From IMG/VR virus record IMGVR_UViG_3300022903_000002, positions 1 through 64,000 of that record: a stretch of 64,000 bases of DNA; one strand, given 5' to 3'. The notes below the pieces were generated by a model. That model made no database searches and had not been told where the DNA came from. It saw nothing but the letters and a program-made list of their open reading frames with translations. Source of the DNA: a virus. Positions 19,234-59,828 of this stretch are shown here, one piece after another. The position numbers and the translations under genes are program-made. How positions within the stretch are numbered: the first letter of the stretch is position 1; every line of letters begins with the position of its first letter.

Positions 19234-19615
19234 CGGAGGCCAGCAACCGAGTTGGCGCGAACGAGCACGAGCCAAATACGGGGCCGAAGCCCGTGCGTAT
19301 CTGGAGTCGCTCGGACCGGACGATCCAGACATGCCCGCGCCGGACACCTATGAGGGGCCAGTCCCGGAATGGCGTGCAGGCAGGAGTGTAGGACGCACCA
19401 TCTACCGCATGGTTGGCGAGGAGGCGTCCAAGGCGGACGTACTGATCGGGATGATGGATACACCCGAGCTCGCCGCCCAGGTGGCCTCCGCGGTGAACGA
19501 GAAGCGGTCCCGGCTGAAGCATCGTGGCGGCAACGCCGAGGACTGTCCGATCTGCTGCTGGCGTAAAGGCTTCTGGCCGTTCATCTGCACTAGCGGGGAG
19601 GGCGACGGTGACTGA
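19226..19615 (+). CDS. hypothetical protein, 129 aa
   Basis: The ATG overlaps the upstream gene by 8 bases after GAAGGAGGAAGGCG, a strong ribosome site. The product is helical with a C-terminal Cys cluster (DCPICCWRKGFWPFIC). It overlaps the Thg1-like gene by 8 bases. Confidence 0.65.
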   Translation: MTDGGQQPSWRERARAKYGAEARAYLESLGPDDPDMPAPDTYEGPVPEWRAGRSVGRTIYRMVGEEASKADVLIGMMDTPELAAQVASAVNEKRSRLKHRGGNAEDCPICCWRKGFWPFICTSGEGDGD

Positions 19616-20408
19616 CCGCACATCGCTCGGCGACAGGATGAAGACCTATGAGGCGGTCACCAGGGCCGTCCTTCCTCGTAGGACATTCACCGTTTGCCGG
19701 GTTGACGGCCGCGCCTTTCATGGCCTCCTCCGTCACGCCGAGAAGCCCTTCGACCGCGACGTCATCGCTGCCATGGACTACACCGCTGAAGCGCTCTGCA
19801 AGGAGATGTCCGGTGTGGTGTTCGCGTACACCCAATCCGATGAGATCTCCGTCCTGCTGACTGACTTTGAGTCGCCCGGCACGGAACCGTGGTTCGGTGG
19901 GGTGATCCAAAAGATCGTGTCGATCGCCGCATCGACTGCGAGTGTCGCGTTCAACAACGTGTACCCCCGCCATGACCAAGACGCGACCGCGACGTTCGAC
20001 GCCCGCGTCTTCACCATCCCCGACTCGGTCGAGGTCGCAAATTATTTCCTGTGGCGGCAGCGTGATTGCGTCCGCAACTCGATCTCCATGGCCGCCCAAG
20101 CCCACTTCTCCCACAAGCGCCTCCACCGGGTGAACACCGACCAGATGCAGGAACTGCTGTGGCAGGAGAAGGGCGTCAACTGGAACGACTACCCGGACGG
20201 ATGCAAGCGGGGCCGCGTCACGGTCCGGAAGTCGGGGGAGCGGTCCGTCACCTATATGGATCACCGCAGCCAGCAGGAAGTGAGCACGGTCGCCTTGCGG
20301 TCGTGGTGGGAGACCGAAGCTGCACCGCACTTCAATGCGAACCCGGGCGGCTGGCTTGCCGACATGATCCCGGCGATTCCCGCTCTCGACGCCAGGAGGT
20401 CAGCGTGA
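19608..20408 (+). CDS. Thg1-like tRNA 3'-5' nucleotidyltransferase
   Basis: This 266-residue protein matches the tRNA-His guanylyltransferase (Thg1/TLP) family, which adds nucleotides in the 3'-to-5' direction to tRNA 5' ends. The catalytic elements are VCRVDGRAFHGLLRHAEKPF (metal-binding D33 and the DGR loop) and FAYTQSDEISVLL (D78-E79), plus a typical NARVFTIPDSVEVANYFLWR-like stretch near residue 145. GTG 19608 follows GGGGAGGG at good distance. Archaeal and bacterial TLPs repair truncated tRNAs, so a phage copy may counter tRNA damage; that part is inference. Confidence 0.88.
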   Translation: MTDRTSLGDRMKTYEAVTRAVLPRRTFTVCRVDGRAFHGLLRHAEKPFDRDVIAAMDYTAEALCKEMSGVVFAYTQSDEISVLLTDFESPGTEPWFGGVIQKIVSIAASTASVAFNNVYPRHDQDATATFDARVFTIPDSVEVANYFLWRQRDCVRNSISMAAQAHFSHKRLHRVNTDQMQELLWQEKGVNWNDYPDGCKRGRVTVRKSGERSVTYMDHRSQQEVSTVALRSWWETEAAPHFNANPGGWLADMIPAIPALDARRSA

Positions 20409-26974: not shown

Positions 26975-27421
26975 GTGGCCGTATCTGCGAGCGGCATGTT
27001 CGTCGCCAACCTAGTCGACATCCTCGACGCCACCCAGCTGGCCGTCGACCTGTCGCTGACTACCAACAAAGTCGCCCTGTTCACGAACTCGATTACGCCC
27101 AACTTCGACAGCGACGTGGGCTACGGCGCCGCGCCTTACAACGCCAACGAAGTGAGCGGAACCGGGTACACGGCCGGTGGTGTAGCGGTCGCTTCGCCGA
27201 CCGTCACAGGTGCGAGCGGGAACGTCACCTACGACATTGCCGACACCTCATGGTCGAGCTCCACCATCACGAACGCCCGTGCTGCGCTGATCTACGCGAA
27301 CGCGCTGACGAACAAGAACGGCATCGTGCTCGTGAACCTAGGAGCCGACTACTCAACTGTGAACGGGACGTTCAGCATCGTCTGGTCGGCGAGTGGGGTC
27401 CTGGTCCTCGACGTCGCATAA
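26975..27421 (+). CDS. beta-rich structural-type protein, 148 aa
   Basis: A GTG start follows GAGGGGG. The product is Ser/Thr/Asn/Ala-rich and beta-stranded (NKVALFTNSITPNFDSDVGY; SGNVTYDIADTSWSSSTI), as in capsid decoration or minor tail proteins. It is followed by the large repeat protein, and the two probably belong to the virion. This is inference from composition and context. Confidence 0.6.
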   Translation: MAVSASGMFVANLVDILDATQLAVDLSLTTNKVALFTNSITPNFDSDVGYGAAPYNANEVSGTGYTAGGVAVASPTVTGASGNVTYDIADTSWSSSTITNARAALIYANALTNKNGIVLVNLGADYSTVNGTFSIVWSASGVLVLDVA

Positions 27422-27430
27422 GGGGTCGTC

Positions 27431-29611
27431 GTGGTCACTCTTGTCGGTGCTGATGCCGGCGGCGGCAACGTCGCCACCATCACCGACCTGACCTGGCCCG
27501 CCGTCCAAGCGAACGACGTCGCTGTCGTCGTCTGGGTCATGCAGAACACCCTCACCCCGACTATCCCGTCCGGATGGACCGTCCCCAGCGGCGGCGCCGT
27601 AGACGCGACGAACGGGGCGAGCCGCACCCGCGTCATGTGGAAGGCCTGCACCGGCTCCGAAACCGGCGCGCTTTCCCTGACGAACTCCACCAGTGCGATC
27701 AACCACCAGTCCGCGATCCTGCTCGTCTACCGCGGCGTCGACACGACAGCACCGATCGACGCACTGAACTCCCGGTCCGAGACGACCGCGGGTACGACGC
27801 ACGCGTCGCCGAGCATCACGACGGTCGCGGCGAACGCCCCGGTTCTGGCTGCGGTGATCGAACGGTCCACGTCCGGCACAAACAACTGGACTGCGCCCAG
27901 CGGCTACACCGAACGCGCTGACTCCACGACACTCGCGACTGGGTCGGGCGGCACGATCGTCGCTGGCGCTGATGACGGCCTCGCGGTTACACGTTCGGGC
28001 GGGACGACAGTCACGCCAAGCGTGTGGACGTCAGCGAACTCGTTCAGTACCGCGAACGTGGTGACGTGGACGCTGAGCTTGAAGCCGGGCGCGACGAACG
28101 CGGCCCCGACCCCGTCCGCGGTCTCAGCGGTCGCTGCGGTTCCGGCGCCGGGACCGGCCACGGGAGAGACAACCTCTCCTGCCGCTGCGGTGGCGGTTGC
28201 CGGGGTTCCGGCGCCTTCGGCGTCGACGGGTTCAGCAGCCTCGCCTTCCGCCGCCGCGGCGACAGCGGCTGTTCCCGCGCCATCTGTGCAGGCGGGCGAG
28301 ACGGCCTCCCCGCCTGTTGTGGTTACCGCCGCGGCGGTACCGGCACCATCGGCTCAGACCGGATCCGTTGCGGCACCCTCCGCTGCTACCGCTGCCACGT
28401 CGGTGCCCGCCCCGGCCTCCTCGGCAAGCGCTACCGCCGTAGCCGCTGCCGTCACAGCCGTGGCCGCTGTACCGGCCCCGGTCTCATCGGCCGGTGCCGC
28501 TGCGACTCCCGCGACGGTCTCTACGGTGGCGTCCGTCCCCGCGGCTGCCGAGGCGACGGGCAGCACCCTCACACCGACCACGGTCACCGCATCCGCAGCC
28601 GTACCATCTGCGGCATCCTCGGCGAGTTCTTCCGCGGCCCCGGCGGCAGTCTCAACAGCGGCAACGATTCCTACGGTCAGCGCGGCCACGGACGCGACAT
28701 CCGCAGCCGCCACGGTTACAGCATCGGCTACGGTTCCGCCTGTTGCGGTCGCCGCAGGAGAATCCGCGCAGCCCTCAACGGCGTCGGCTACGGCATCCGT
28801 CCCGGCGCCTGCCGCCACGACAGGGGCGACTGCAGCGGCAACCCCCGTTGTCGTCTCAACGACCATCTCCGCCCCGGCCATCTCAGCGGGGGCGACAGCC
28901 AACCCCGCACAGGTCGATGCGTCCACGACGGTTCCAGCACCGACCGTGGACACGAGCGGCAACACGACGGTCGCCCCGTCCACGGTTCGCGCCGCTATTG
29001 ATGTGCTTGTTCCGGCGACCTCGGCGAGCTCGTCTGCGACGCCGGCCACGGCCGCGGGTAGCGCCTCGACCGGTATGCCGACCGTCGCCGCGAGGACCGA
29101 AGCGGACCCGCCACCGGTCGTAACATCCACCGCTGTTCCAGGACCTTTGGCCAGCAGCGGCTCCGCGGCGCAACCGTCGGCTGTAGCCGCCACTGCCGCG
29201 ATCCCCGCGGTCGTGAGCAGCGTGGCCACTGTTGTAGCCGCAACGACAGCGACGGCAGGCTCGACGGTACCGGCGCCTACGACGCTCATCAGTGTCCGCA
29301 CCGATGCTGGTGTGGTCGCTGCACTCGCGACGGTCCCGACCGCGGCTACCTCCACGGACCACGGCACCGAGGCGACGCCGAGTGTCGTCCACGGACACGC
29401 GACCATCCCGCACCCGACAGTCAACGTCCCGGACATCCAGCCAGTCCCAGATCACCTCACCGGTACGGCTATCGTCACCGGTTACGCCGGGACCGTCCAC
29501 CTACGCCAGCTCAGCGGTTCGGCCTCCCGCCGGCCCCGCTCTGGAGCGGCTACGCCCTACGCCTACAGCGGCACGGCGACACCGGAGCTACTTGTTGGGA
29601 CAGCGAGGTGA
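27431..29611 (+). CDS. 726-aa surface protein with 22-residue Ala/Pro/Thr/Ser repeats
   Basis: Residues 1-220 form a beta-rich domain (PSGWTVPSGG; RTRVMWKACTGSETGALSLT; VYRGVDTTAPIDAL) that resembles the N-terminal domain of the tail-region protein at 58773. Residues 237 to about 650 are 17-18 tandem copies of a 22-residue unit with consensus VPAPxxxTGxxAxPxxVxxxA. Charged residues are very few. The C-terminus is different (GYAGTVHLRQLSGSASRRPR). A fibre stalk or mucin-like glycosylated region is likely, and glycosyltransferase genes follow within 1 kb. It starts at a GTG with no strong ribosome site. Confidence 0.7.
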   Translation: MVTLVGADAGGGNVATITDLTWPAVQANDVAVVVWVMQNTLTPTIPSGWTVPSGGAVDATNGASRTRVMWKACTGSETGALSLTNSTSAINHQSAILLVYRGVDTTAPIDALNSRSETTAGTTHASPSITTVAANAPVLAAVIERSTSGTNNWTAPSGYTERADSTTLATGSGGTIVAGADDGLAVTRSGGTTVTPSVWTSANSFSTANVVTWTLSLKPGATNAAPTPSAVSAVAAVPAPGPATGETTSPAAAVAVAGVPAPSASTGSAASPSAAAATAAVPAPSVQAGETASPPVVVTAAAVPAPSAQTGSVAAPSAATAATSVPAPASSASATAVAAAVTAVAAVPAPVSSAGAAATPATVSTVASVPAAAEATGSTLTPTTVTASAAVPSAASSASSSAAPAAVSTAATIPTVSAATDATSAAATVTASATVPPVAVAAGESAQPSTASATASVPAPAATTGATAAATPVVVSTTISAPAISAGATANPAQVDASTTVPAPTVDTSGNTTVAPSTVRAAIDVLVPATSASSSATPATAAGSASTGMPTVAARTEADPPPVVTSTAVPGPLASSGSAAQPSAVAATAAIPAVVSSVATVVAATTATAGSTVPAPTTLISVRTDAGVVAALATVPTAATSTDHGTEATPSVVHGHATIPHPTVNVPDIQPVPDHLTGTAIVTGYAGTVHLRQLSGSASRRPRSGAATPYAYSGTATPELLVGTAR
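28139..29300 (+). repeat. 66-bp coding repeat array (22-aa units)
   Basis: The DNA encodes about 17-18 tandem 22-codon units, most opening with codons for V-P-A-P. The period is exact for at least the first ten units. The DNA copies differ at many positions, so this is an old, diverged array kept in register at protein level. The right edge is approximate. Confidence 0.7.
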
Positions 29612-29614
29612 ACC

Positions 29615-29950
29615 GTGGCCCGCGTCACGCCCCTCACTCTCGATGAGAACAACGACGAAACCCTCGACCTGACCGTCACCGCAGACACGCTGATCGATCC
29701 GGATCAGGCCAGTTTCGAGTTGGTGATCAAGGCGTCCGCATCTGCGGATGATGCTGACGGTACGACGCTCACTGACGCGGACGGCATCACGGTCACCTCA
29801 ACGGAGCCGGCCAAGACCATCGCCCTAACCGCGGACATACCGGCGAGCGTGCTCGAGACTCCAGGCACCCGGTTCTGGCGCCTGGACGTGATTGTTTCCG
29901 GGAAGCGCGGCACCGCGATGTACGGGCCTCTCCGGATCCGGGACCTGTGA
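29615..29950 (+). CDS. beta-sandwich structural-type protein, 111 aa
   Basis: The GTG start lies four bases after the repeat protein. The product is beta-rich (LTLDENNDETLDLTVTADTL; RFWRLDVIVSGKRGTAMYGP), like baseplate or fibre-associated beta domains. The order suggests it acts with the repeat protein. No family is certain. Confidence 0.6.
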   Translation: MARVTPLTLDENNDETLDLTVTADTLIDPDQASFELVIKASASADDADGTTLTDADGITVTSTEPAKTIALTADIPASVLETPGTRFWRLDVIVSGKRGTAMYGPLRIRDL

Positions 29951-29959
29951 GGGGACTCG

Positions 29960-30643
29960 GTGACCGCTGACCTCCTGATGATCGTCCCGTCCCGTGGACG
30001 CCCACAGAACATCGCCGCCCTGTGGGAAGCGTGGGAGGCCACATCTGGTGGCGTCGCGGAACTCCTCGTCGCCGTCGATGACGACGACCCGGCCCTGACC
30101 GAGTATGAGCAGGTCTGCCGGGAGCGGCACATCGACCTCACTGTCGGCCCTCGCTTGCGGATGGTGCCGACCCTTAACCAGGTCGCGGCCCGGTGGGCGC
30201 CGCATTTCTTCGCGCTCGGATTCCTCGGGGATGATCATCGACCCCGGTCTACCGGGTTCGATCAGCGGTATCTCGAGACCCTCATCGAGCTCCGCACGGG
30301 CTTCGTCTACGGCAACGACCTGCTCGCCGGCGAACGCCTCCCAACTCAATTCGCACTTACTTCGGACATCGTCCAGGCCCTCGGCGCAATGATCGCCGCG
30401 CCGGTCCGGCATATGTTCGCCGACAATACGATCTGGGACCTCGGACACGCGATCGACCGAATCCGTTACCTGCCCGACGTGATTGTGGAGCACCTGCATC
30501 CGATCGCGCAGAAGGCGGACATGGATGCGGGCTACGAAGAGGTGAACGACCCGGACGCGTTCGAAGCCGACCGCCTCATCTACGCGGACTGGTACGCGAA
30601 CCAGATGCCCGCGGACGTCGCCAAGCTGAAGACGCTCCTGTGA
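29960..30643 (+). CDS. glycosyltransferase-like protein (GT-A fold)
   Basis: This 227-residue protein opens with a nucleotide-sugar-binding GT-A pattern: LLMIVPSRGRPQNIAALWEA, then ELLVAVDDDDPAL and the acidic FLGDDHRPRS, which could be the metal-binding DxD-like motif. The C-terminal part holds HMFADNTIWDLGHA. It overlaps the epimerase gene by 4 bases, so the two form a sugar-modification unit. The acceptor is unknown; the upstream repeat protein is a candidate. Confidence 0.7.
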   Translation: MTADLLMIVPSRGRPQNIAALWEAWEATSGGVAELLVAVDDDDPALTEYEQVCRERHIDLTVGPRLRMVPTLNQVAARWAPHFFALGFLGDDHRPRSTGFDQRYLETLIELRTGFVYGNDLLAGERLPTQFALTSDIVQALGAMIAAPVRHMFADNTIWDLGHAIDRIRYLPDVIVEHLHPIAQKADMDAGYEEVNDPDAFEADRLIYADWYANQMPADVAKLKTLL

Positions 30644-31542
30644 GCCGCGCACTCGTATCCGGCGGCGCGGGATTCATCGGCCGACACCTCGTCCGCGCGC
30701 TCACCGACGCAGGCTGGGACGTCACAGCGTTCGACATCTACCCGCGCAAGATCCCGAAGGTTCGTTTCAGGGACGCACGGGCGTTCTTCTCCTCGGACGC
30801 CACGACCTACGATCTCGTGGTGCATGCTGCGGCGGTGGAGCCTCACCGGTCCGCGATCGACAATTCGCCGCTGACGGTCGGTGCCGGGAACCTCGAACTC
30901 GACGCTGGCCTGTTCCAGTGGGCGGCCCGAACCAAGCCCGGCCGCGTGGTGTACCTGTCGAGCTCCGCCGCATATCCGATCTGGCTGCAGGATGGCATCC
31001 ATCCCTACCGGCTTGTCGAGAAAGACGCGAGGAAAGCGCATCAGCCGGACGCGATGTATGGCGAACTCAAGGCGATGGGGGAGCGGCTCGCATCCGCGTA
31101 CCGGCAGCAGGGCGGCATGGTGACGGTCGTAAGGCCGTTCTCTGGCTACGGCGAGGACCAGTCTGAGGACTTCCCGTTCGGCGCGTTCACCGCCCGCGCT
31201 CGCCGCCGTGACGACCCGTTCGAGGTATGGGGCGACGGAACACAGGTCCGCGACTGGATCCACGTCTCGGATGTGGTGGGTGCGATCCTCGCGGCCTACG
31301 AGCACGGCGTTGACGGCCCCGTGAACTTGGCGACCGGACGGCCCACGTCCTTCAACGAGTTGGCTCTCATGTTCGCCGCGGAGGCGGGCTACGCGCCGCA
31401 GATCAAGCACGTCCTGGACGCTCCGCGCGGTGTCGCGTACAGGGTCGGAGACCCGACACTCCTGCGGACGTTCTACGAGTGCAAGGTGACGATTGAAGAG
31501 GGCATCAGGCGGGCGCTGCCTAGCGGCGCTTGTTGTTCCTGA
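30640..31542 (+). CDS. NAD(P)-dependent nucleotide-sugar epimerase/dehydratase
   Basis: This 300-residue extended SDR enzyme has the cofactor motif SGGAGFIGRHLVRAL at residues 6-20. It also has the catalytic YGELK (Y-x3-K), a Ser-rich YLSSSAAYP just before it, and VRDWIHVSDVVGAILAAYEH, a family hallmark. It should convert an NDP-sugar for the adjacent glycosyltransferases. It is translationally coupled to the upstream transferase (ATGA-type overlap). Confidence 0.88.
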   Translation: MSRALVSGGAGFIGRHLVRALTDAGWDVTAFDIYPRKIPKVRFRDARAFFSSDATTYDLVVHAAAVEPHRSAIDNSPLTVGAGNLELDAGLFQWAARTKPGRVVYLSSSAAYPIWLQDGIHPYRLVEKDARKAHQPDAMYGELKAMGERLASAYRQQGGMVTVVRPFSGYGEDQSEDFPFGAFTARARRRDDPFEVWGDGTQVRDWIHVSDVVGAILAAYEHGVDGPVNLATGRPTSFNELALMFAAEAGYAPQIKHVLDAPRGVAYRVGDPTLLRTFYECKVTIEEGIRRALPSGACCS

Positions 31543-31903: not shown

Positions 31904-32140
31904 GTGTCCGCACCGAACGAACAGCCCATCTACCGGCGCCTCCGACCCCCGTCCGGAACGGCAGTGTGCGTGTCCACCCGAGACGACCGCATCACCATCG
32001 CCGTCGGCGCACGACAACGCGTCAACTGCGACCGCGAAGACGCATACGCCGTGTGGCGGGCACTGACGACGACCCTGTTCGCTGACGGCGGCACGGCCCC
32101 GAAGTGGGCGATGCGTCTACCAGAAGCCAGCAGCCGGTGA
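31904..32140 (+). CDS. hypothetical protein, 78 aa
   Basis: The GTG start follows GGAG by 7 bases. The product is beta-rich then helical (VCVSTRDDRITIAVGARQRV; AVWRALTTTLFADGG). It overlaps the glycosyltransferase start by 4 bases. Confidence 0.6.
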   Translation: MSAPNEQPIYRRLRPPSGTAVCVSTRDDRITIAVGARQRVNCDREDAYAVWRALTTTLFADGGTAPKWAMRLPEASSR

Positions 32141-32811
32141 CCATCCCGCTGATCGTGTTGACGAACGGCCGCCGCGACTGCATCTCCCAGACGATCCCCA
32201 GCATCACCAAGCACCTGACCGGCTACGGCGACATGGTCATCGTGGACGACTCCGGGGACAAGGACTATCGGGCGTGGCTTGCCGTCGAGTTCCCGGACGC
32301 TCTCGTCACTGCCGTAGCCTCGGAGGCCGCCGGGTACTGGCGGGCGATGCGGACCGTCTGGGCGATCGCCCGAGGCTCCGGAGCCGACACGGTAGTGATG
32401 TGGGAAGACGACTTCGTTCTCCTCGACGACATCGACGTAGCGTGCCTCGACCGCGTCCTCGACGAGCACCCATACCTGACACAGATCGCTCTGCGCCGGC
32501 AGCCGTGGTTCGCCAACGAGATCGCGCACGGCGGGACGCTGGAAGCCCTGGAAGTGCAGGGCCAGACGTTCGCCGAGACCAGCGACGGCAGACACCATTG
32601 GATCGAGCACCGCGCCTGCTTCACCGGCAACCCGTGCTTCATCCGGCGCAGGACATTCGAGCGCGACTGGCCCGAGGGCGCATGGTCGGAGTCCCGCTTC
32701 GGCCGGCTCCTCTTCGCCGACCCTGACGCCCGTGGCGCGTACTGGGGACGTCGCAGCGACCCGCCCCACGTGGAGCACATCGGACACGAGCGGGTCGGGA
32801 CGGAGTATTAG
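32137..32811 (+). CDS. GT-A fold glycosyltransferase (GT2-like)
   Basis: This 224-residue protein begins at the GTG overlapping the upstream stop; in-frame GTG 32104 is the alternative. The GT-A elements are PLIVLTNGRRDCISQTIPSI, MVIVDDSGD and VVMWEDDFVLLDDID, whose EDD is the likely metal site. HRACFTGNPCFIRRRTFE follows, as in small transferases. It is the second of three transferases in this region. Confidence 0.75.
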   Translation: MTIPLIVLTNGRRDCISQTIPSITKHLTGYGDMVIVDDSGDKDYRAWLAVEFPDALVTAVASEAAGYWRAMRTVWAIARGSGADTVVMWEDDFVLLDDIDVACLDRVLDEHPYLTQIALRRQPWFANEIAHGGTLEALEVQGQTFAETSDGRHHWIEHRACFTGNPCFIRRRTFERDWPEGAWSESRFGRLLFADPDARGAYWGRRSDPPHVEHIGHERVGTEY

Positions 32812-32813
32812 TA

Positions 32814-33041
32814 ATGGACAGCCTCGAAGCTCTTCAGCGGGCAGTGCTCGACGCGGAGCGCATCTACGGCATAATCCGCGACGATCTCCAGCGTCAGCTT
32901 GACGCGGATGGCCATCAGCACCTGACGCCAGAACAGATGCGCGATCCGAACGGCCGATTCATCCTCCTGGACGCGCTCACCGCGATCGTCAATGCGCGGG
33001 CCACTCAGCTATGGGCCACACAGTCACTCGACCGCTCTTAA
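32814..33041 (+). CDS. hypothetical helical protein, 75 aa
   Basis: The ATG is three bases after the glycosyltransferase stop. The product is amphipathic helix throughout (LEALQRAVLDAERIYGIIRD). No function is apparent. Confidence 0.6.
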   Translation: MDSLEALQRAVLDAERIYGIIRDDLQRQLDADGHQHLTPEQMRDPNGRFILLDALTAIVNARATQLWATQSLDRS

Positions 33042-33066
33042 AACATCTTCTGAGGTGGCTGCCGCC

Positions 33067-33630
33067 ATGGCTTTGAACGACCACGCCTCCACACTCCGCC
33101 AGGCAGCACTCGACGCCTCACAGCGCCTCCACGCCCAGATCGAAGGCGAGTTCGCTCTCCGCCCCGGCGTCGACCGCAACGAGACCACCCTCGACGCCGA
33201 ATTCGACATCCGCTCCACCGCCGAGACCTTCTACGCCTGGCTGAACGGCACCACCCACCTCAGCCTCGAACGCGGCCCAGTCACGAAGCAGACCCCCGGC
33301 AGCCCCGCCGGTACAACCCTGAACGAGGAGAGCACTGTGCAGATCCATGACGACGAGCAGTTCACCCTGTCCGTCCACACCACCGACGCCAAGGGCTTCG
33401 AAACCAGCGACCAGATCGACTGGGCCGTCGACAACACCGACGCCGTCACCCTCCAGGTCTCCGACGACGGCCGCTCCTGCACCGTCGTAGCTGGCCAGCC
33501 CGGCTCGGCCGTGATCACGGTGACGGACTCCGCCACCGACCCGGTCCTGTCCGCGACCGAAGCCGTCGACGTGGTCGCGGGCGGTACGGCGACGATCACC
33601 CTGACCGAGGGCGACGTCACCAAGCAGTAG
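33067..33630 (+). CDS. structural-type protein with Ig-like domain
   Basis: ATG 33067 follows GAGGTGG by 8 bases. Residues 1-75 are helical and may multimerise. Residues 100-180 form a Big2-like immunoglobulin domain (IDWAVDNTDAVTLQVSDDGR; CTVVAGQPGSAVITVTDSAT). Ig-like domains decorate phage capsids and tails. Being separate from the head operon, it may be an accessory surface protein. Confidence 0.65.
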   Translation: MALNDHASTLRQAALDASQRLHAQIEGEFALRPGVDRNETTLDAEFDIRSTAETFYAWLNGTTHLSLERGPVTKQTPGSPAGTTLNEESTVQIHDDEQFTLSVHTTDAKGFETSDQIDWAVDNTDAVTLQVSDDGRSCTVVAGQPGSAVITVTDSATDPVLSATEAVDVVAGGTATITLTEGDVTKQ

Positions 33631-34233: not shown

Positions 34234-34458
34234 ATGCCAGCCCACCAGAAGGCATACCGCCGCATCTTCGACATGGTCGCCCAGGCGAAATCCAGTAGAG
34301 ACCAAGACCGCTGGCTGGATGAGGCTCTGGACCTCCGGCAGCGGGCAACAGACTGGGACGCCGACCAATGGGGTTTCAACCCCGACCTGTGGATGGAAGC
34401 CGAGCGCGCCGAACTCGCGAGCCGCGGCGGCAACGACTGGCCCCAGGAACGCGCGTGA
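34234..34458 (+). CDS. hypothetical helical protein, 74 aa
   Basis: The ATG follows GGGGAAGG. The product is helical (AYRRIFDMVAQAKSSRDQDR) with a Trp-rich end (DADQWGFNPDLWMEAERAEL). It is coupled to the next glycosyltransferase by a GTGA overlap. Confidence 0.6.
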   Translation: MPAHQKAYRRIFDMVAQAKSSRDQDRWLDEALDLRQRATDWDADQWGFNPDLWMEAERAELASRGGNDWPQERA

Positions 34459-35171
34459 GGGTCCTTGTAGCCATTCCGTGGAGACCGCAGCCTGACCGCA
34501 TCTACGCCCACGATCTGACCGTCCAGCGCTACAGGGAGCTTCTCCCCGACGCCGACATCGTGGACGTCGACACTGACCATGACCCGTTCAGCCTCGCCGC
34601 CTGCCGCAACAAGGGCGTCCGCCTCGCCGAAGGGGACGGCCACGACGTGGTCGTACTCGGCGACGCAGACACACTCGCGGAGCAGGAGCCTCTCCTCGCC
34701 GCCATCGACAGCGCGCGCAGCAGCGGCAAGGTACACCTGCCGTACACCTTCTACAGGTCCCTCGGCTTCTACGGCACCAACCAACTACTCAACGGCTTCC
34801 CGATCGAGACCTGCGACAACGTGACCATCCCCACGGCCACGAGCGGCGTCTATGTCGCCACCCCCGCGATCTGGTGGGCATGCGGCGGCCAGGACGAACG
34901 CATGCTCGGCTGGGGCATGGAAGATGTCGCGTGGCTCGTCGCCCACCGGGCGCTACTCGGCGGTGAACCTGTCCGGCATGACGGCAGCGTCTACGCACTT
35001 CACCACGAGTCCGCAGCCAAGCAAGGCGACCAGTACGAGCGGAACGTCGCGCTCTACCACCGCTACATCGAAGCTGGCGACTCCGGAAACCCCGACGCTG
35101 TACGCGCGGTCGTCGCCGAACATGCCGACGCTGTGACCTGCGGCAAGTCAACATCGTCCACCGGCGGGTAA
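34455..35171 (+). CDS. galactosyltransferase-like GT-A enzyme
   Basis: This 238-residue protein starts at a GTG overlapping the upstream stop. The GT-A features are MRVLVAIPWRPQPDRI, NKGVRLAEGDGHDVVVLGDA with a D-A-D metal motif, and MLGWGMEDVAWLVAHRAL, a G-x-G-x-E-D-x-x-x acceptor/catalytic element of GT7/GT27-like enzymes. It is the third transferase in this region. It most likely modifies a phage or host surface molecule. Confidence 0.75.
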   Translation: MRVLVAIPWRPQPDRIYAHDLTVQRYRELLPDADIVDVDTDHDPFSLAACRNKGVRLAEGDGHDVVVLGDADTLAEQEPLLAAIDSARSSGKVHLPYTFYRSLGFYGTNQLLNGFPIETCDNVTIPTATSGVYVATPAIWWACGGQDERMLGWGMEDVAWLVAHRALLGGEPVRHDGSVYALHHESAAKQGDQYERNVALYHRYIEAGDSGNPDAVRAVVAEHADAVTCGKSTSSTGG

Positions 35172-42955: not shown

Positions 42956-42969
42956 CCCCCTGATTGATC

Positions 42970-43036
42970 GCAGCAACCGGACCGTTGGCACGGGCCGGGG
43001 CCGCTGCATGCCTGAAAGGAAGTCCCCCCGTGCCGA
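42970..43036 (+). promoter_or_regulatory. structured leader of capsid gene
   Basis: GCAGC (42970) pairs with GCTGC (43003) and CCGG (42977) with CCGG (42995). The loop word TTGGCACGGG (42985-42994) can pair with CCCGTGCCGA (43027-43036), which contains the GTG start of the capsid gene. The order resembles the interleaved sites A-C, but here the second helix covers the start codon and is less perfect. Confidence 0.4.
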
Positions 43037-43998
43037 CCTACAACTCTGGTATCACTCGGGATGGCAGCGACGACCCGCTGATCCCCGTCCCGGTCTCCAA
43101 CCAGATCATCCAGGAGATGCCGACGAGCAGCTTCATGCTGCAGCGCGCCGGCCGCGTCCAGATGTCCACGAAGTCCCAGCGTCAGCCGGTCCTGGACGTT
43201 CTGCCGATGGCCTACTGGGTCTCCGGTGACACCGGGATGAAGCAGACCTCGGCCGTGGACTGGAAAAACGTGTCGCTGGTCGCTGAGGAGCTCGCGGTCA
43301 TCGTCCCGATCCCCGAGTCGTACCTCGACGACGCGCAGGTCCCCCTGTGGGACGAGGTCCGGCCGCGGATCGTAGAGGCGTTCGGCGCGAAGATCGACGG
43401 AGCCGCGATGTTCGGTCTCGATAAGCCGTCCTCGTGGCCCGCCGCGATCTACCAGTCGGCGGTCGCCGCCGGCAACACCGTCCGGACCGGAGCGGCAGCG
43501 GACTTCGGCGTGGACGTCGCCGCGATCGGTGAGGTCGTCGCCCGCGACGGTTTCGCTGTCAACGGCTTCGCGGCCCGCCCGGGTCTGACGTGGAAGCTCG
43601 TGGCGATGCGGTCGTCGCAGGGCGTGCCGCTGTACCAGCCGAACCTGCAGGACGGCACCGGCCCCGGCCAGCTGTACGGCTACCCGGTCAGCGAGGTCAA
43701 CAACGGGTCCTGGGACTCCGACGAAGCCGAACTCATCGCCGGTGACTGGACGAAGGCGATCATCGGGATGCGGCAGGACATCACCTGGAAGATGTTCGAC
43801 CAGGGTGTCATCTCCGACGGTTCCGGTGCTGTGGTCCTGAACCTCATGCAGCAGGACTCGGTGGCGCTGCGCGTCACGATGCGCGTCGCCTACGCCACGT
43901 CGAACCCGGTCACCACCCTCAACACCACCGAGAACACCAGATTTCCCTTTGGGGTCGTACAGGCCTCGACGGCGGACAGTGTCGCGGGTTCTGCCTGA
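43030..43998 (+). CDS. major capsid protein (HK97 fold)
   Basis: This 322-residue protein follows the scaffold gene; GTG 43030 is 6 bases after AAGGAAG plus a C-run. HK97-fold features include the N-arm and E-loop region (RVQMSTKSQRQPVLDVLPMA; YWVSGDTGMKQTSAVDWKNV) and the spine/P-domain (ELAVIVPIPESYLDDAQVPL; WDEVRPRIVEAFGAKIDGAA). The C-terminal A-domain ends with DSVALRVTMRVAYATSNPVT. It forms the icosahedral shell. Confidence 0.93.
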   Translation: MPTYNSGITRDGSDDPLIPVPVSNQIIQEMPTSSFMLQRAGRVQMSTKSQRQPVLDVLPMAYWVSGDTGMKQTSAVDWKNVSLVAEELAVIVPIPESYLDDAQVPLWDEVRPRIVEAFGAKIDGAAMFGLDKPSSWPAAIYQSAVAAGNTVRTGAAADFGVDVAAIGEVVARDGFAVNGFAARPGLTWKLVAMRSSQGVPLYQPNLQDGTGPGQLYGYPVSEVNNGSWDSDEAELIAGDWTKAIIGMRQDITWKMFDQGVISDGSGAVVLNLMQQDSVALRVTMRVAYATSNPVTTLNTTENTRFPFGVVQASTADSVAGSA

Positions 43999-44065: not shown

Positions 44066-45052
44066 ATGCGGATCCTGGCGATGGTCGCGGCGTATCCACC
44101 TGACCGCTGTGTGGGCTCGTGGATCATGACGCATGCGCTGCTGCGGGCACTCGTCGCCCGCGGCCATCAGGCGGATGTGGTGCTCACGGCGGCGTCAGGG
44201 GCTCCGTATGCCCTCGACGGTGTGAACGTGTGGCCGCACGTCGACAAGGGCGACCCGTTCCGGTTCATTCAGGACGCCGATGTGCTGGTCGCACATGCGG
44301 AGTCCGCAGGCCGGGCGGTGGCGCTGGGGGAGATGTGGGGTGTACCGGTCGTGAGGCTGGCACACAACACGAGCCCGACCACGGAGTCGTCGATGCGTCG
44401 CCGTGCGGCGGCGCTGACGGTCTTCAACTCCCAGCACATGGCGGACCTGTTCGCCGCGGAGGCGGGACCGTCGATCGTTGTGCGTCCACCGGTCGACCCA
44501 GCGGAGTACGCGACGACACCGGGTGATCACGTCACACTCATCAACGTCACACACGACAAGGGCGCCGAGACGTTCTACTCGCTCGCCGAACGGTTCCCCG
44601 ATGTGCCGTTCCTCGGTGTTGAGGGCGGCTACGGCGTACAGGTCACCGACGACCTGCCCAACGTCGAGATCGTCCCGCACACGCCCGCGGATCGGATGCG
44701 GAACGTCGTGTATGCCCGCACCCGGGTCCTGTTGATGCCGTCCGCTTACGAGTCGTGGGGTCGTACCGGTGTTGAAGCGATGACGAGCGGCATCCCGGTT
44801 CTCGCACATCCCGCGGCCGGCCTAAAAGAGTCACTCGGCGACGCGGGCGTGTTCGTGGACCGAGACGACATCAATGGGTGGGAGCGGGAGCTCCGGCGCC
44901 TGTTGGATGGCCGCCGGTGGCGTCATGCGTCGAAACGCGCGAAGGCGCGGGCTGTCGAGCTCGACCCGTCCCCTGACCTTGCTGTGTGGTGTGCGGAGCT
45001 CGAGACGCTGGGTGCGCAACGTGCCCGGTTCCGTCCTCTCACCCGTGCCTGA
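44066..45052 (+). CDS. GT4-family glycosyltransferase in the head operon
   Basis: This 328-residue protein is a GT-B fold transferase. It has the N-terminal MRILAMVAAYPPDRCVGSWI, then VVRLAHNTSP, FNSQHMADLF and the C-terminal domain with TLINVTHDKGAETFYSLAER. The family donor-binding element is MPSAYESWGRTGVEAMTSGI followed by PVLAHPAAGLKE, including the E-x7-E-like acidic pair. ATG 44066 follows GGAGG. It lies between capsid and connector genes, so a virion target is likely. Confidence 0.85.
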   Translation: MRILAMVAAYPPDRCVGSWIMTHALLRALVARGHQADVVLTAASGAPYALDGVNVWPHVDKGDPFRFIQDADVLVAHAESAGRAVALGEMWGVPVVRLAHNTSPTTESSMRRRAAALTVFNSQHMADLFAAEAGPSIVVRPPVDPAEYATTPGDHVTLINVTHDKGAETFYSLAERFPDVPFLGVEGGYGVQVTDDLPNVEIVPHTPADRMRNVVYARTRVLLMPSAYESWGRTGVEAMTSGIPVLAHPAAGLKESLGDAGVFVDRDDINGWERELRRLLDGRRWRHASKRAKARAVELDPSPDLAVWCAELETLGAQRARFRPLTRA

Positions 45053-48473: not shown

Positions 48474-51400
48474 GTGGCCGCTCAAGTCGGTGCTGCTTAC
48501 ATCAAGGTCGCTCCGAACCTCGCCGGTTTCCACCGCACGATCACCAAAGAGCTAAAAAGCCTCAGCCCGCAGGTCAAGAAGATCGGGTTGGGGCTCGGCC
48601 GGAACCTTGGCGACGGCATCAAGGTCGGCCTCGGCGACCCGCTTTCCGGACCGCTGGATGAGTCCACCAAGAAGCAACGGCAGAAAGGCCCCAAGCAGGG
48701 CGAAGAGGTCGCTGGGGCGTTCGCGAAGGGTTTCGAGAAGCGCCTGAAGGCAGCGTTTCAGGCCCTGCCGAAAGCCGAAATCGACGCTGATTCCTCACCC
48801 GCCGACAAGAAGATCGCGGAGCTTCGGCGACAGCTTGAGGCACTCTCCGGCAAGACCGTCGGTGTCGACATTGACGCGGGTGCGGCTCTCTCAGAGGTCG
48901 CCGCGATCCGGTCCGAGTTGGAGGCACTGGACGGCCACGAGTCGATCCAGGTCGATGTCGACGCCGCTGCGGCCCTGGCGGAGCTCACCGCGGTACAGGT
49001 CGAGGTCGATCGGGTAGATGGGCGCACAGCCCGTGTGAACGTCAACGCGGACGTGTTGCCGGCGTTGGCTGGTATCGGGCTTGTCAGCACGGCGTTGCTT
49101 GGTCTGACGGCGATTCCGATTGCGGCGACGGTCGGTGTGGGGATCCTGTCGCTGGTCGGTCCGCTTGGTGCGGCGGGAGCTGGGTTCGCTGGTCTTGCTG
49201 CGGTCGCGACTCCGTCGATCAACCGTATCGGCGAGGCGCTGAAGGTCCAGAAGCAGGCGCAGGACGCGTCGACGGGTAGTGCCGCGCAGGCCGCGGCGGC
49301 GAACAAGAAGCTCGCCGCGACGATGGCGGCTCTGTCGCCTGCTGAGCGCGACGTGCTCAAGTCGTGGAACGGGCTGCGGACGGCGTTCACGGGCTGGGCG
49401 AAGGAACTGCAGCCTGCCGTGCTCCCGCTGTTCACGCGCGGCATCAACCTGGTGAAGCAGGCTCTGCCCGGGTTGACGCCGATCGTGAAAGGCGCGGCCG
49501 GCGCGGTCAACGGTCTCCTCGGGGACGTTACCCGCGCGGCTCAGTCGCCGTTCTGGCGGCAACTACGGACGAATATCACAGGTCTGGTGCCGACGTCGAT
49601 CACGGGTTTCGGGAAGATCGCCGGGAACATCGCGACGGGTCTGGCTGGGATCGTGTCCGCGTTCTTGCCGTATGCGCCCACGATCTTGTCGTTCATCACC
49701 CGGATCACCGCGGGTTTCGCCCGTTGGGGCCAGGGGCTGGGGACCTCGAACGGCTTCGCGAAGTTTATGGCCTACGTCAAGCAGAACGCGCCGCTGATCC
49801 TCGAGACGGTCAAGCAGCTCGGCTTGTCGATCGCGCACATTGTGTCGTCGCTGGCACCACTCGGCCCGGCCGTCCTCGGCGGCTTCGGGCTGCTGCTGCG
49901 GTTTATCGGCATGCTGACGCCCGGCGAGATCCAGGCCATCGCGATCGCGTTCACGCTCCTGTCGGTGTCGATCTGGGCCGTGAATTTCGCGCTTGAAGCC
50001 AATCCGGTGGTGCTTGTCATAACGCTGATCGTCGCTCTTGTGGCGGCGGTCGTCTTGGCGTTCAACCACGTGACGTGGTTCCACAATGCGGTGGTCGCGG
50101 CGTTCAACGGCATCAAGGCCGCGGTCCTGTTCGTCTGGAATTCGGTCTTGAAGCCGACGTTCTCGGCTCTCGTGGTCGCTTTCCAAGCGATCAGCACGGT
50201 CGTGATGTGGCTGTGGCGGAACGTGATCTCCCCGGCATTCAGCGCCATCTCGCTGGCCGCACGGATCCTGTTCGCGATCGTCGCCGTTGCCGTCCTGGCG
50301 CCGCTGGTCATCGCGTTCAACATCCTCAAGGCCGTGATTCTGGCTTGGTGGCACATCGTTGTGGTGCCAGCGTTCGCGGCGGTGCAGGCGGTCATCGCGG
50401 CAGCATGGGTGGTGATCCACCCGATCCTGGCCGCGCTCGGCGTCGCGGTCCGCGCTGTTGGCGCTGCGGCGATGTGGCTGTGGCACAACGCGATCGTGCC
50501 GGCCTGGAACGGCATCAGCCTTGCAATTGCCACCGTGTACAACACGGTGATTCACCCGATCTTGAACGCGCTGAACGCGGTGCTACGGAACGTGATCGCC
50601 CCGGTTTTCCGGTGGATCTACACATCGGTGATCAAGCCGATGTTCCAGGCGGCGGGCGCTGTGATCCGTAACGTCTGGAACACCGCTATAAGTCCGGCGT
50701 TCAACGCTCTTAAGTCGGGTGTGAACGCGGTCAAGAACGCGTTCTCCACCGCTGTCTCGGCAATCGGGCGAATCTGGAAGGGCCTGGAGTCCGCCACCAA
50801 GAAACCCGTCCAATTTGTTGTCAACACGGTCTACAACAACGGCATCCGTTCCGTGTGGAACAAGGTCGCCGGCCTAGTTCACCTGCCTCAGCTGCCTGCG
50901 GCGAAGTTCGCTCAGGGCGGTATCTTCCCGGGCTACACGCCCGGCAAGGACCCGTACTCCATGCCGATGGCCGCCTTCTCTGGCGGCGAGGCCGTCATGC
51001 GGCCCGAGTTCACCCGAGCGGTCGGCCCCGGGTTCGTGTACGCGGCGAACAAGGTAGCTCGCAAGCGTGGGCCTGGCGGTGTCCGGGATTTCCTCGCGAA
51101 CGGTGAGATGAAGTTCGCGACGGGCGGGATCCTGCCCGGACGGCATGTGGCGGCATTCGCGAATGGCGGCATCATCGGAGGGATCCTCGGGGCCGTCAAG
51201 CGTGCCAGCAGTCTCGTGGTTCGCGGCGCGTCATCGGTCCTCGGCGGGGGTGCGAGCGCGTTCGCGAAGACCGTCCTCAACCCGATCCTGTCTCGGATCC
51301 CGGGGGCGGATTCGCCGTGGGCGCAGGGCATCCTGTCCCTGCCGAAACGGATGATCGATGGGTTCATCTCCTGGCTGCACACAGCCATCGATCCGAAGCT

Positions 51401-58772: not shown

Positions 58773-59828
58773 ATGGCTATCGCGTTTCGTGCGTCCGCTG
58801 AGGCGCACGTCACCTCCGGGTCACTCACCCTCACGATCCCCGGCGCTGTCCAGGCCGGTGACCTCCTCGTCCTCGTCGGCGGTATGAACAACGCAGGCAA
58901 CGCCGCCTACGACTGGAGTACGCCGTCCGGGTGGACGAAGAAGGATGATCGCAGCGTCGGCTCCAACCTGTACGGCGTCGTCTACGTCAAAACCGCCACC
59001 AGCGGCGACTCCGGCGCCAGCCTCACCCTCGCCTCCAGCAACACCGGCAAGAGCTGCGCGATCATCGCCGCATACTCCGGACTCGACCAATCCGCGCCCG
59101 TCGACGTCATCGCAGGCCTCTCCGAGACGACCTCCACCGTCTCCCACGCCACCCCAACCGTCGCGTCGACACTGGACCAGGACTGGGTGATCATCGCCGC
59201 GGTCCAGTCCAACTCGGTAGCCGAGTCGTGGGGCACCGCATCCGGCTACACGAAACGGCAGGACTCCCTCGACAACACGCTCCCGTCCGGGCACGTCACC
59301 GCGACACTCCAGGACAAAGGACCGGAGTCGGTCGGCACGTATGGGGGAGAGGTCCTCACCGCCGCGTCCGCGTCGTCGAAGGCGGCGATGTGGACGATCG
59401 GGATCTCCCCGCAGCAGTCCACGCAGACCGCGCGCCCCACCTCCGACATCGATATCACCAGCGCAGTCGGCGTCCCAAGCCCTGGGGTCGGCAGCGGCGT
59501 GTACGCGCGCCTCGCCGAGAACACCGACTCCAGCTACGCCGAGATCAGCAACGGCGGCGACGTCGAGGTCGGGTTCGCCTCGCTGATCGATCCGCAGGCC
59601 AGTACCGGGCACACCCTCACCTACCGCGCTTGGTACGCCGGCGGGGCATCGAGCGGCACCCAGACGGTCACGCTGAAACGTGGGTCGACGACGATCGCGT
59701 CGTGGACGGACACTCTCACCGCGAGCCCGCAGACGTTCACCCACACCCTGAACGGGACGCAGGCTGACAGCATCCCGACGGGGGACTACTCCAACCTTCG
59801 GGTCCGGTTCGCGCCGAGCGTGAGCTGA
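58773..59828 (+). CDS. surface/fibre protein, 351 aa
   Basis: ATG 58773 follows AAGGAG. Residues 1-205 form a beta-rich module (AGDLLVLVGGMNNAGNAAYD; PSGWTKKDDRSVG; AIIAAYSGLDQSAPVDVIAG; TVSHATPTVAS) that resembles the N-terminal domain of the repeat protein at 27431. Residues 230-350 form a second beta domain (DVEVGFASLIDPQASTGHTL; FTHTLNGTQADSIPTGDYSN). A virion surface role is likely. Confidence 0.7.
   Translation: MAIAFRASAEAHVTSGSLTLTIPGAVQAGDLLVLVGGMNNAGNAAYDWSTPSGWTKKDDRSVGSNLYGVVYVKTATSGDSGASLTLASSNTGKSCAIIAAYSGLDQSAPVDVIAGLSETTSTVSHATPTVASTLDQDWVIIAAVQSNSVAESWGTASGYTKRQDSLDNTLPSGHVTATLQDKGPESVGTYGGEVLTAASASSKAAMWTIGISPQQSTQTARPTSDIDITSAVGVPSPGVGSGVYARLAENTDSSYAEISNGGDVEVGFASLIDPQASTGHTLTYRAWYAGGASSGTQTVTLKRGSTTIASWTDTLTASPQTFTHTLNGTQADSIPTGDYSNLRVRFAPSVS

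What the first reader, a model, noticed from the sequence alone, without database searches (positions are those of the whole stretch)
27431..29611. Mucin-like 22-residue repeat protein next to glycosyltransferases
Over 400 residues are made of 22-residue units (VPAPxxxTGxxAxPxxVxxxA) rich in Ala, Pro, Thr and Ser and nearly free of charge. Actinobacteria O-mannosylate Pro/Thr/Ala-rich stretches, and two transferases and an epimerase follow within 5 kb. I infer a glycosylated stalk or coat protein that could mask the virion or bind host surface.
Basis: partly seen in the sequence, partly recalled or inferred. Interest (0 to 1): 0.7.

Follow-up and report, generated by a model that had tools for sequence, protein, structure and literature searches.

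The report
Phage fibre with 22-residue repeats
A phage gene that looked like a sugar-coated mucin more likely encodes one flavour of a widespread, barely described phage fibre built from repeating strand-like units, and the sugar-transfer genes beside it look like a separate cassette.

Summary
The repeat protein is real: a 726-residue ORF with a ~220-residue beta-rich domain, 444 residues of degenerate 22-residue units and a short tail. Silent sites are saturated while the period persists, so selection holds it. Relatives in 28 viral loci keep the period and sit beside, or fused to, terminase, head-tail adaptor, head protease or Dit-like tail proteins. The constant partner is the small upstream gene phrog_644: 23 of 26 relative records against 3 of 26 controls. 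Starting from phrog_644 alone, 27 of 74 loci had an 18-26-residue periodic protein just downstream, against 2 of 74 at control lags. Ala/Pro content follows genome GC, so the mucin look is largely composition. Glycosyltransferases are not the constant partner: those tested occur in few relatives, none within 5 kb of the repeat gene, and homologues often lie near capsid genes. Best reading: a virion adhesion fibre with a beta-repeat shaft. Its glycosylation is possible but untested and not specifically supported.

The parts
26975..27421 (+). phrog_644-family small protein (148 aa), the conserved partner gene directly upstream
   Evidence: phrog_644 E 2.7e-12; family found in 23 of 26 repeat-bearing relative records vs 3 of 26 controls
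27431..28105 (+). N-terminal beta-rich domain of the repeat protein
   Evidence: 37% identical paralogue in the tail block, 9e-17; aligned with relatives; low-to-moderate confidence beta model
28103..29434 (+). 22-residue repeat array (residues 225-668)
   Evidence: autocorrelation, HMM of repeats 1.2e-21 (the window's own units are among the seeds), saturated silent sites
29435..29611 (+). C-terminal tail with short LxGxA-like motifs, similar in look to the C-termini of L131, L142 and L088
   Evidence: read from translations; not tested statistically
29615..29950 (+). small predicted beta-sandwich protein (111 aa), phrog_1084-like
   Evidence: phrog_1084 5.8e-4; one search did not find phrog_1084 in G000 but did in 6 of 26 relatives; Pfam LtfC 0.087, below cut-off
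29960..30643 (+). glycosyltransferase (phrog_14945)
   Evidence: 1.7e-45
30640..31542 (+). NAD-dependent nucleotide-sugar epimerase
   Evidence: PF01370 8.2e-40
32104..32811 (+). galactosyltransferase-like protein (phrog_3047)
   Evidence: 3.6e-24
34368..35171 (+). galactosyltransferase-like protein (phrog_1721)
   Evidence: 3.9e-20
42964..43998 (+). major capsid protein
   Evidence: PF05065 5.8e-27
44066..45052 (+). GT4-type glycosyltransferase directly after the capsid gene
   Evidence: PF13692 1.4e-12, over cut-off; similar slot in TurkishDelight gp20
58773..59828 (+). second protein with the N-terminal domain, no 22-residue repeats seen, among tail genes
28354..29436 (-). antisense ORF of 360 aa, judged a shadow of the repeat ORF
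   Evidence: repeat frame supported by homology and synteny

Best explanation
The protein is a virion appendage (adhesion fibre). A beta-rich N-terminal domain is carried on a shaft of about 20 copies of a 22-residue unit, each unit probably two short beta-strands with turns at the conserved prolines, and a short C-terminal tail probably anchors it to the neck or tail. It is made and assembled with the phrog_644 protein encoded just upstream and perhaps with the small beta-sandwich protein just downstream. The adjacent sugar-transfer cassette is a separate, mobile module whose likelier targets are capsid or tail-tube proteins. Shown here: the repeat, its selection, the paralogue in the tail block, the structural-gene neighbourhood in relatives, the phrog_644 linkage, and the lack of a constant link to transferases. 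Inferred: strand structure, location on the virion, binding role, and the role of phrog_644.
For: Structural neighbours or fusions in relatives: Dit-like fusion in L084 1.7e-37, L147 7e-34 and L025 9.4e-21; head-tail adaptor next door in L131, L157, L145 and head protease in L138; large terminase in L140 and G006 and small terminase in L018. phrog_644 on the same strand upstream in 19 of 28 repeat loci; 5 of the 9 without it have at most 1 base of upstream sequence. phrog_644-first test: 27 of 74 vs 2 of 74 at control lags and 5 of 89 upstream. Named phages: in Gordonia phage GMA1 the phrog_644 homologue is followed by a protein of PHROG 'minor tail protein' family phrog_7114, 5.3e-180; satellite MiniFlayer gp6 is a phrog_644 homologue near a LamG protein whose P..G[SD]G motifs are mostly 22-26 residues apart within runs, in what PMC10690885 (passages read) calls a possible adsorption module. 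Framework positions not used to pick seeds stay hydrophobic in relatives (V/I/L/M/F at 6: 76%, at 20: 65%; Ala at 21: 77%).
Against: No structure supports the strands firmly: both AlphaFold models are poor (mean pLDDT 43.9 and 47.6) and no PDB match reached E 0.001. No virion data. In the window the module is ~8 kb upstream of terminase, not inside the tail block. Relatives place it at different structural sites (neck, head, tail tip), so location is uncertain. The repeat-unit conservation is partly circular because seeds were chosen by Pro/Val positions. 47 of 74 phrog_644 loci showed no 18-26 period at z>=6.
Confidence: 0.68

Rival explanations
1. Mucin-like stalk: the Ser/Thr/Pro/Ala repeat is an extended chain densely O-glycosylated by the phage's own neighbouring transferases, masking the virion or binding surfaces.
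For: Ser+Thr 30%, second highest of the 28 repeat regions compared besides its duplicate entry (range 0.14-0.31); three transferases and an epimerase within ~6 kb; actinophage virion glycosylation by phage enzymes is reported in print (passages in PMC11256854 and PMC13313380; the primary paper is not held). The closest relative G006 also carries the transferase and epimerase.
Against: The transferase families tested are rare in relatives and not adjacent; homologous transferases lie near the capsid gene in G006, phiAsp2 and TurkishDelight, though by DNA-metabolism genes in Annadreamy; Ser/Thr gained in the window are not at family-conserved positions; Ala+Pro tracks GC.
Confidence: 0.17
2. Tail- or head-linked protein in which the repeat is only a flexible, unglycosylated Ala/Pro spacer, with no regular fold.
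For: Low-confidence models; composition typical of linkers.
Against: A 22-residue register kept over ~20 units and across phages with very different composition, including ctEqG8 (z 10.0 at lag 22), with saturated silent sites.
Confidence: 0.12
3. Not a virion protein: a surface or accessory protein made in the host during infection.
For: No proteomics; the module lies outside the main tail block.
Against: Fusions to Dit-like tail proteins and adjacency to adaptor genes; no signal peptide seen by eye.
Confidence: 0.03

Closest known systems
PHROG phrog_7114 'minor tail protein' (Gordonia phage GMA1 gp28)
   Same: Directly after a phrog_644 homologue; weak 22-residue period (z 3.7) and an N-domain-like segment by eye
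   Different: The window protein does not match phrog_7114; domain order appears reversed; composition differs
MiniFlayer satellite-phage adsorption module (gp6-gp9)
   Same: phrog_644 homologue, large protein with LamG domains and motifs often 22-24 residues apart, small 111-aa protein, then head-to-tail adaptor
   Different: No sequence match of gp9 to window 29615-29950; gp8 was not tested with the repeat HMM; the module's role in the paper is putative
Actinophage virion glycosylation (mycobacteriophage Che8 type)
   Same: Phage-encoded transferases; GT4 gene beside the capsid gene in the window
   Different: Reported targets are capsid (passages) and tail-tube C-termini (recalled), not a repeat fibre
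T5-family lateral tail fibre protein LtfC (Pfam PF23926)
   Same: Faint similarity of the downstream 111-aa protein (0.087)
   Different: Below cut-off; only a lead; the DT57C paper was seen in a search listing only

Membership tests
Phage tail/neck fibre or minor tail protein | Encoded with, or fused to, virion structural proteins in relatives | tested here: met
   (Dit-like fusions; adaptor, protease, terminase neighbours)
Phage tail/neck fibre or minor tail protein | Match of this protein itself to a named tail family | tested here: not met
   No PHROG match at E<=1 and only a sub-cut-off Pfam match
Phage tail/neck fibre or minor tail protein | Present in purified virions | not testable with these tools
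   IMG/VR record only; no proteomics
Mucin-like O-glycoprotein | Ser/Thr/Pro-rich tandem repeat | tested here: met
Mucin-like O-glycoprotein | Hydroxyl acceptor positions conserved while the rest drifts | tested here: not met
   the most conserved positions are hydrophobic or Pro; Ser/Thr at 5, 13 and 16 are 57-64% in relatives but 26-53% in the window, whose Ser/Thr gains are at 6, 8, 10, 15, 18
Mucin-like O-glycoprotein | Glycans attached | not testable with these tools
   needs mass spectrometry
Actinobacterial membrane O-mannosylation substrate | Export signal at the N-terminus | tested here: inconclusive
   none seen by reading the N-terminus; no predictor available
22/24-residue repeat proteins linked to phrog_644 | phrog_644 gene directly upstream on the same strand | tested here: met
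   26975-27421, 9 bases from the repeat ORF
22/24-residue repeat proteins linked to phrog_644 | Period of 22 or 24 residues | tested here: met
LtfC-like beta-sandwich (downstream gene) | PF23926 match above curated cut-off | tested here: not met
   13.8 bits against 27
Beta-solenoid or trimeric beta-fibre | Resolved strand architecture | tested here: inconclusive
   low-confidence models; no solved-fold match at E<=0.001, best Z 7.5

The most novel reading that the evidence does not exclude
phrog_644 is the general adaptor or assembly partner of a pan-phage class of adhesion fibres whose shafts are made of 22- or 24-residue double-strand repeats of freely varying composition, with interchangeable jelly-roll or LamG-like heads; the class spans siphoviruses, podoviruses and a satellite phage that uses such fibres to ride on its helper's neck. 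The window protein is its Ala/Pro-rich high-GC flavour.
Probability: 0.35. Interest if true: 0.72.

Novelty: new variant of a known kind. Interest (0 to 1): 0.5.

Why it matters
The repeat has no model in the Pfam and PHROG libraries searched, so such proteins are easily left as 'hypothetical' although they may hold the phages' binding parts. A reliable neighbour (phrog_644) would let annotators find these fibres across very different phages, and the MiniFlayer link makes satellite-to-helper attachment a testable case. It also warns that Ala/Pro/Thr-rich repeats in GC-rich genomes can imitate mucins.

Tried and rejected
Direct homology: tblastn of the whole protein in 50,697 phage records found nothing at 1e-5, the N-domain only hits with E>=0.03; the search for related loci with the protein and with A5 found no relatives, and A4 was unusable. 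A stringent DNA pattern gave 0 viral loci and 0 in genome contigs; looser patterns gave the relatives and, among 118 genome-contig stretches, two true members by my reading, L233 (Nonomuraea cypriaca) and L260.

Recent tandem duplication: rejected (no DNA array there; silent sites saturated). Antisense ORF: taken as a shadow. LtfC membership: rejected at cut-off. Structure: models too poor; the match to a phage receptor-binding head (5e7f, Z 6.7) is within the common background and not used; 27 viral-library matches at E<=0.001, mostly unnamed proteins.

Rows dropped or not independent: repeat HMM seeds were chosen by Pro/Val positions, so conservation at positions 1-4, 14 and 17 is circular. 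The 26 records are the 28 repeat loci without the near-duplicates L156 and L160; L127/L149 and L131/L143 are near-duplicates too (dropping one of each: 21 of 24 vs 3 of 26, p 8e-8). The 26 control records were picked by me; all three controls with phrog_644 proved to have a repeat or N-domain-like protein just downstream, so they may be distant members. Of 92 phrog_644 loci, 18 were set aside for lack of downstream sequence; L293-L295 and L300/L301 look alike, L291, L292, L302, L318 come from contigs already in the repeat set, and L356 (lag 26) is another repeat type. That set of 51 includes loci chosen by a GC-rich pattern, hence the separate 23-row check (Ala+Pro rho 0.69, p 3e-4; Ser+Thr no trend). 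Ser+Thr fell with GC in the full 51 (rho -0.44), yet the window is Ser/Thr-rich for its GC: a point for the glycan reading.

Paper searches that found no description of this repeat or of phrog_644: (open-licence library only).

Full report
What the window is. The window is bases 1-64000 of a 105,082-base IMG/VR virus record. It carries an ordinary tailed-phage gene order: large terminase 37851, portal 39546, head protease 41425, scaffold 42293, capsid 42964, major tail protein 46558, tape measure 48474, Dit-like 53217, minor tail 54163, endolysin 61997. G+C is about 65%. The transferase at 29960 has homologues in Streptomyces, Arthrobacter and Actinoplanes phages (69 records), so an actinobacterial host is plausible but unproven.

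The observation. The ORF at 27431-29611 is as described. The 22-residue period is far above shuffles, with 44 slightly stronger than 22. The repeats are old: at identical four-fold degenerate residues one, two or three units apart the third base agrees 31%, 29% and 18% of the time against 28% for random pairs, and no DNA-level tandem array is found there. The protein period is therefore held by selection. Third-position G+C in the repeats (0.71) is lower than in three other genes (0.80-0.81) and second-position G+C is very high (0.77), as expected from Ala/Pro/Thr/Ser codons. Residues 1-220 are a separate domain, 37% identical to part of a 351-residue protein at 58773-59828 in the tail block.

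Relatives. DNA patterns for VPAP units fetched 120 and 39 viral stretches, some in both. A 44-position HMM from 43 seed pairs recognised 29 ORFs at E<=0.001, two of them the window's own protein; with L034, found by regex and eye, I worked with 28 viral loci besides the window. Their repeats keep the period (z at lag 22 from 3.1 to 15.8; L034 not computed) with Ser+Thr from 14 to 31%. N-terminal parts are the window-type beta domain or a LamG-like domain (by eye; a LamG model reached only E 4e-4, below cut-off, in L151). Neither Pfam nor PHROGs has a model for the repeats in the relatives scanned (9 and 6 proteins).

Neighbourhood. In L084, L025 and L147 the repeats are followed in the same ORF by a Dit-like minor tail domain. 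In L131, L157 and L145 a head-tail adaptor follows; in L138 a head protease; in L140 and G006 the large terminase; in L018 a small terminase. phrog_1084 was found in 6 of 26 relatives. The strongest link is phrog_644, the gene ending 9 bases upstream in the window: 23 of 26 relative records, 3 of 26 controls, Fisher p 2.8e-8; on the same strand upstream in 19 of 28 loci by tblastn.

A test that does not start from the repeat. I fetched 92 loci by phrog_644 alone (12 and 80). Of 74 with at least 1.2 kb downstream, 27 hold an ORF within 3.5 kb with an 18-26-residue period at z>=6; at z>=5 there are 29, with lags 22 (17), 24 (9), 26 (2) and 21 (1). Lags 27-35 gave 2 of 74 and upstream ORFs 5 of 89 at z>=6 (Fisher 1.3e-7 and 7.4e-7). 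The repeat sequences differ greatly. Ala+Pro content rises with locus G+C in 51 repeat regions (rho 0.64) and in 23 chosen through phrog_644 (rho 0.69). In Podoviridae sp. ctEqG8 the protein after the phrog_644 homologue has a 22-residue period (z 10.0) with 8% Ala and 6% Pro. So the constant is period and gene context, not a mucin-like composition.

Sugar-transfer genes. The window has transferases at 29960, 32104 and 34368, an epimerase at 30640, and a GT4 enzyme at 44066 between capsid and a Gp19-like protein (the latter below cut-off). Among 26 relatives, PF00535 matched 4, phrog_14945 1 and PF13692 1, none within 5 kb of the repeat gene; many records are short, so this is a weak negative. 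tblastn of the window's transferases and epimerase over 156 loci found only G006's copies and an epimerase in L148. In G006 the repeat gene (L161 6824-8737) is followed by terminase, portal, protease and capsid, then two other transferases and the transferase and epimerase homologous to the window's (44% and 57-62% identical), then the adaptor (the protease is placed by its ORF only). TurkishDelight's GT4 homologue lies between capsid and major tail genes, and phiAsp2's homologue of the 29960 enzyme is the fourth gene after the head protein; Annadreamy's lies among DNA genes. The cassette therefore travels independently of the repeat gene and often sits by head genes, which fits reports of glycans on the capsid protein of some actinophages (passage in PMC11256854). 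I recall, but could not read, that the primary paper places glycans on capsid and tail-tube C-termini.

Mechanism. The family's most constant positions are Val 1, Pro 2, Pro 4, Val 6, Pro 14, Val 17, Ala 19, Val/Ile 20 and Ala 21 (1-4, 14 and 17 were partly imposed by seed choice). Alternating hydrophobic residues between prolines suggest two short strands per unit. Two AlphaFold models put short strands at regular steps but with confidence too low to count, and repeats are known to mislead such models (recalled). I infer a beta-repeat shaft carrying a beta-rich head, anchored by its C-terminal tail, and assembled with phrog_644. MiniFlayer offers a possible precedent: its phrog_644 homologue gp6 lies with a LamG protein, a 'tail fiber' gene and an adaptor; its authors say a tail fibre gene and three hypothetical genes could be an adsorption module and saw its tail fibres bind the helper's neck (passages). 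Which MiniFlayer gene makes those fibres is not shown.

Verdict. The repeat is real and the appendage idea is sound; the mucin and glycosylation idea is possible but not specifically supported. The more interesting result is the phrog_644-linked class of 22/24-residue repeat proteins.

Noticed in passing
window 44066-45052: A GT4 glycosyltransferase sits directly after the capsid gene; TurkishDelight's homologue, and other transferases in G006, also lie just after the capsid gene. It makes capsid or tail glycosylation a better bet than glycosylation of the repeat protein.
   Followed up: partly
window 58773-59828: The repeat protein's N-terminal domain recurs without repeats in a 351-aa protein among the tail genes.
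   Followed up: partly
L280 5186-10334 (MiniFlayer): The satellite phage's putative adsorption module contains a phrog_644 homologue and a large LamG protein with P..G[SD]G motifs often 22-24 residues apart.
   Followed up: partly
L287 and L288 (control records G029, G041): phrog_644 genes here are followed by 20- and 22-residue repeat proteins of wholly different composition (z 12.1 at lag 20; 7.7 at lag 22).
   Followed up: partly
window 19524-20408: tRNA-His guanylyltransferase family protein (phrog_4717, 3.2e-78) in a phage with no tRNA gene found in the window.
   Followed up: no
window 48474-53216: The tape measure protein also matches a PHROG labelled endolysin (phrog_971, 9.2e-83) over its first 990 residues.
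   Followed up: no
window 32992-33630: A 212-aa protein with a weak bacterial Ig-like match (Big_2, 0.0087, below cut-off) lies inside the transferase cassette.
   Followed up: no
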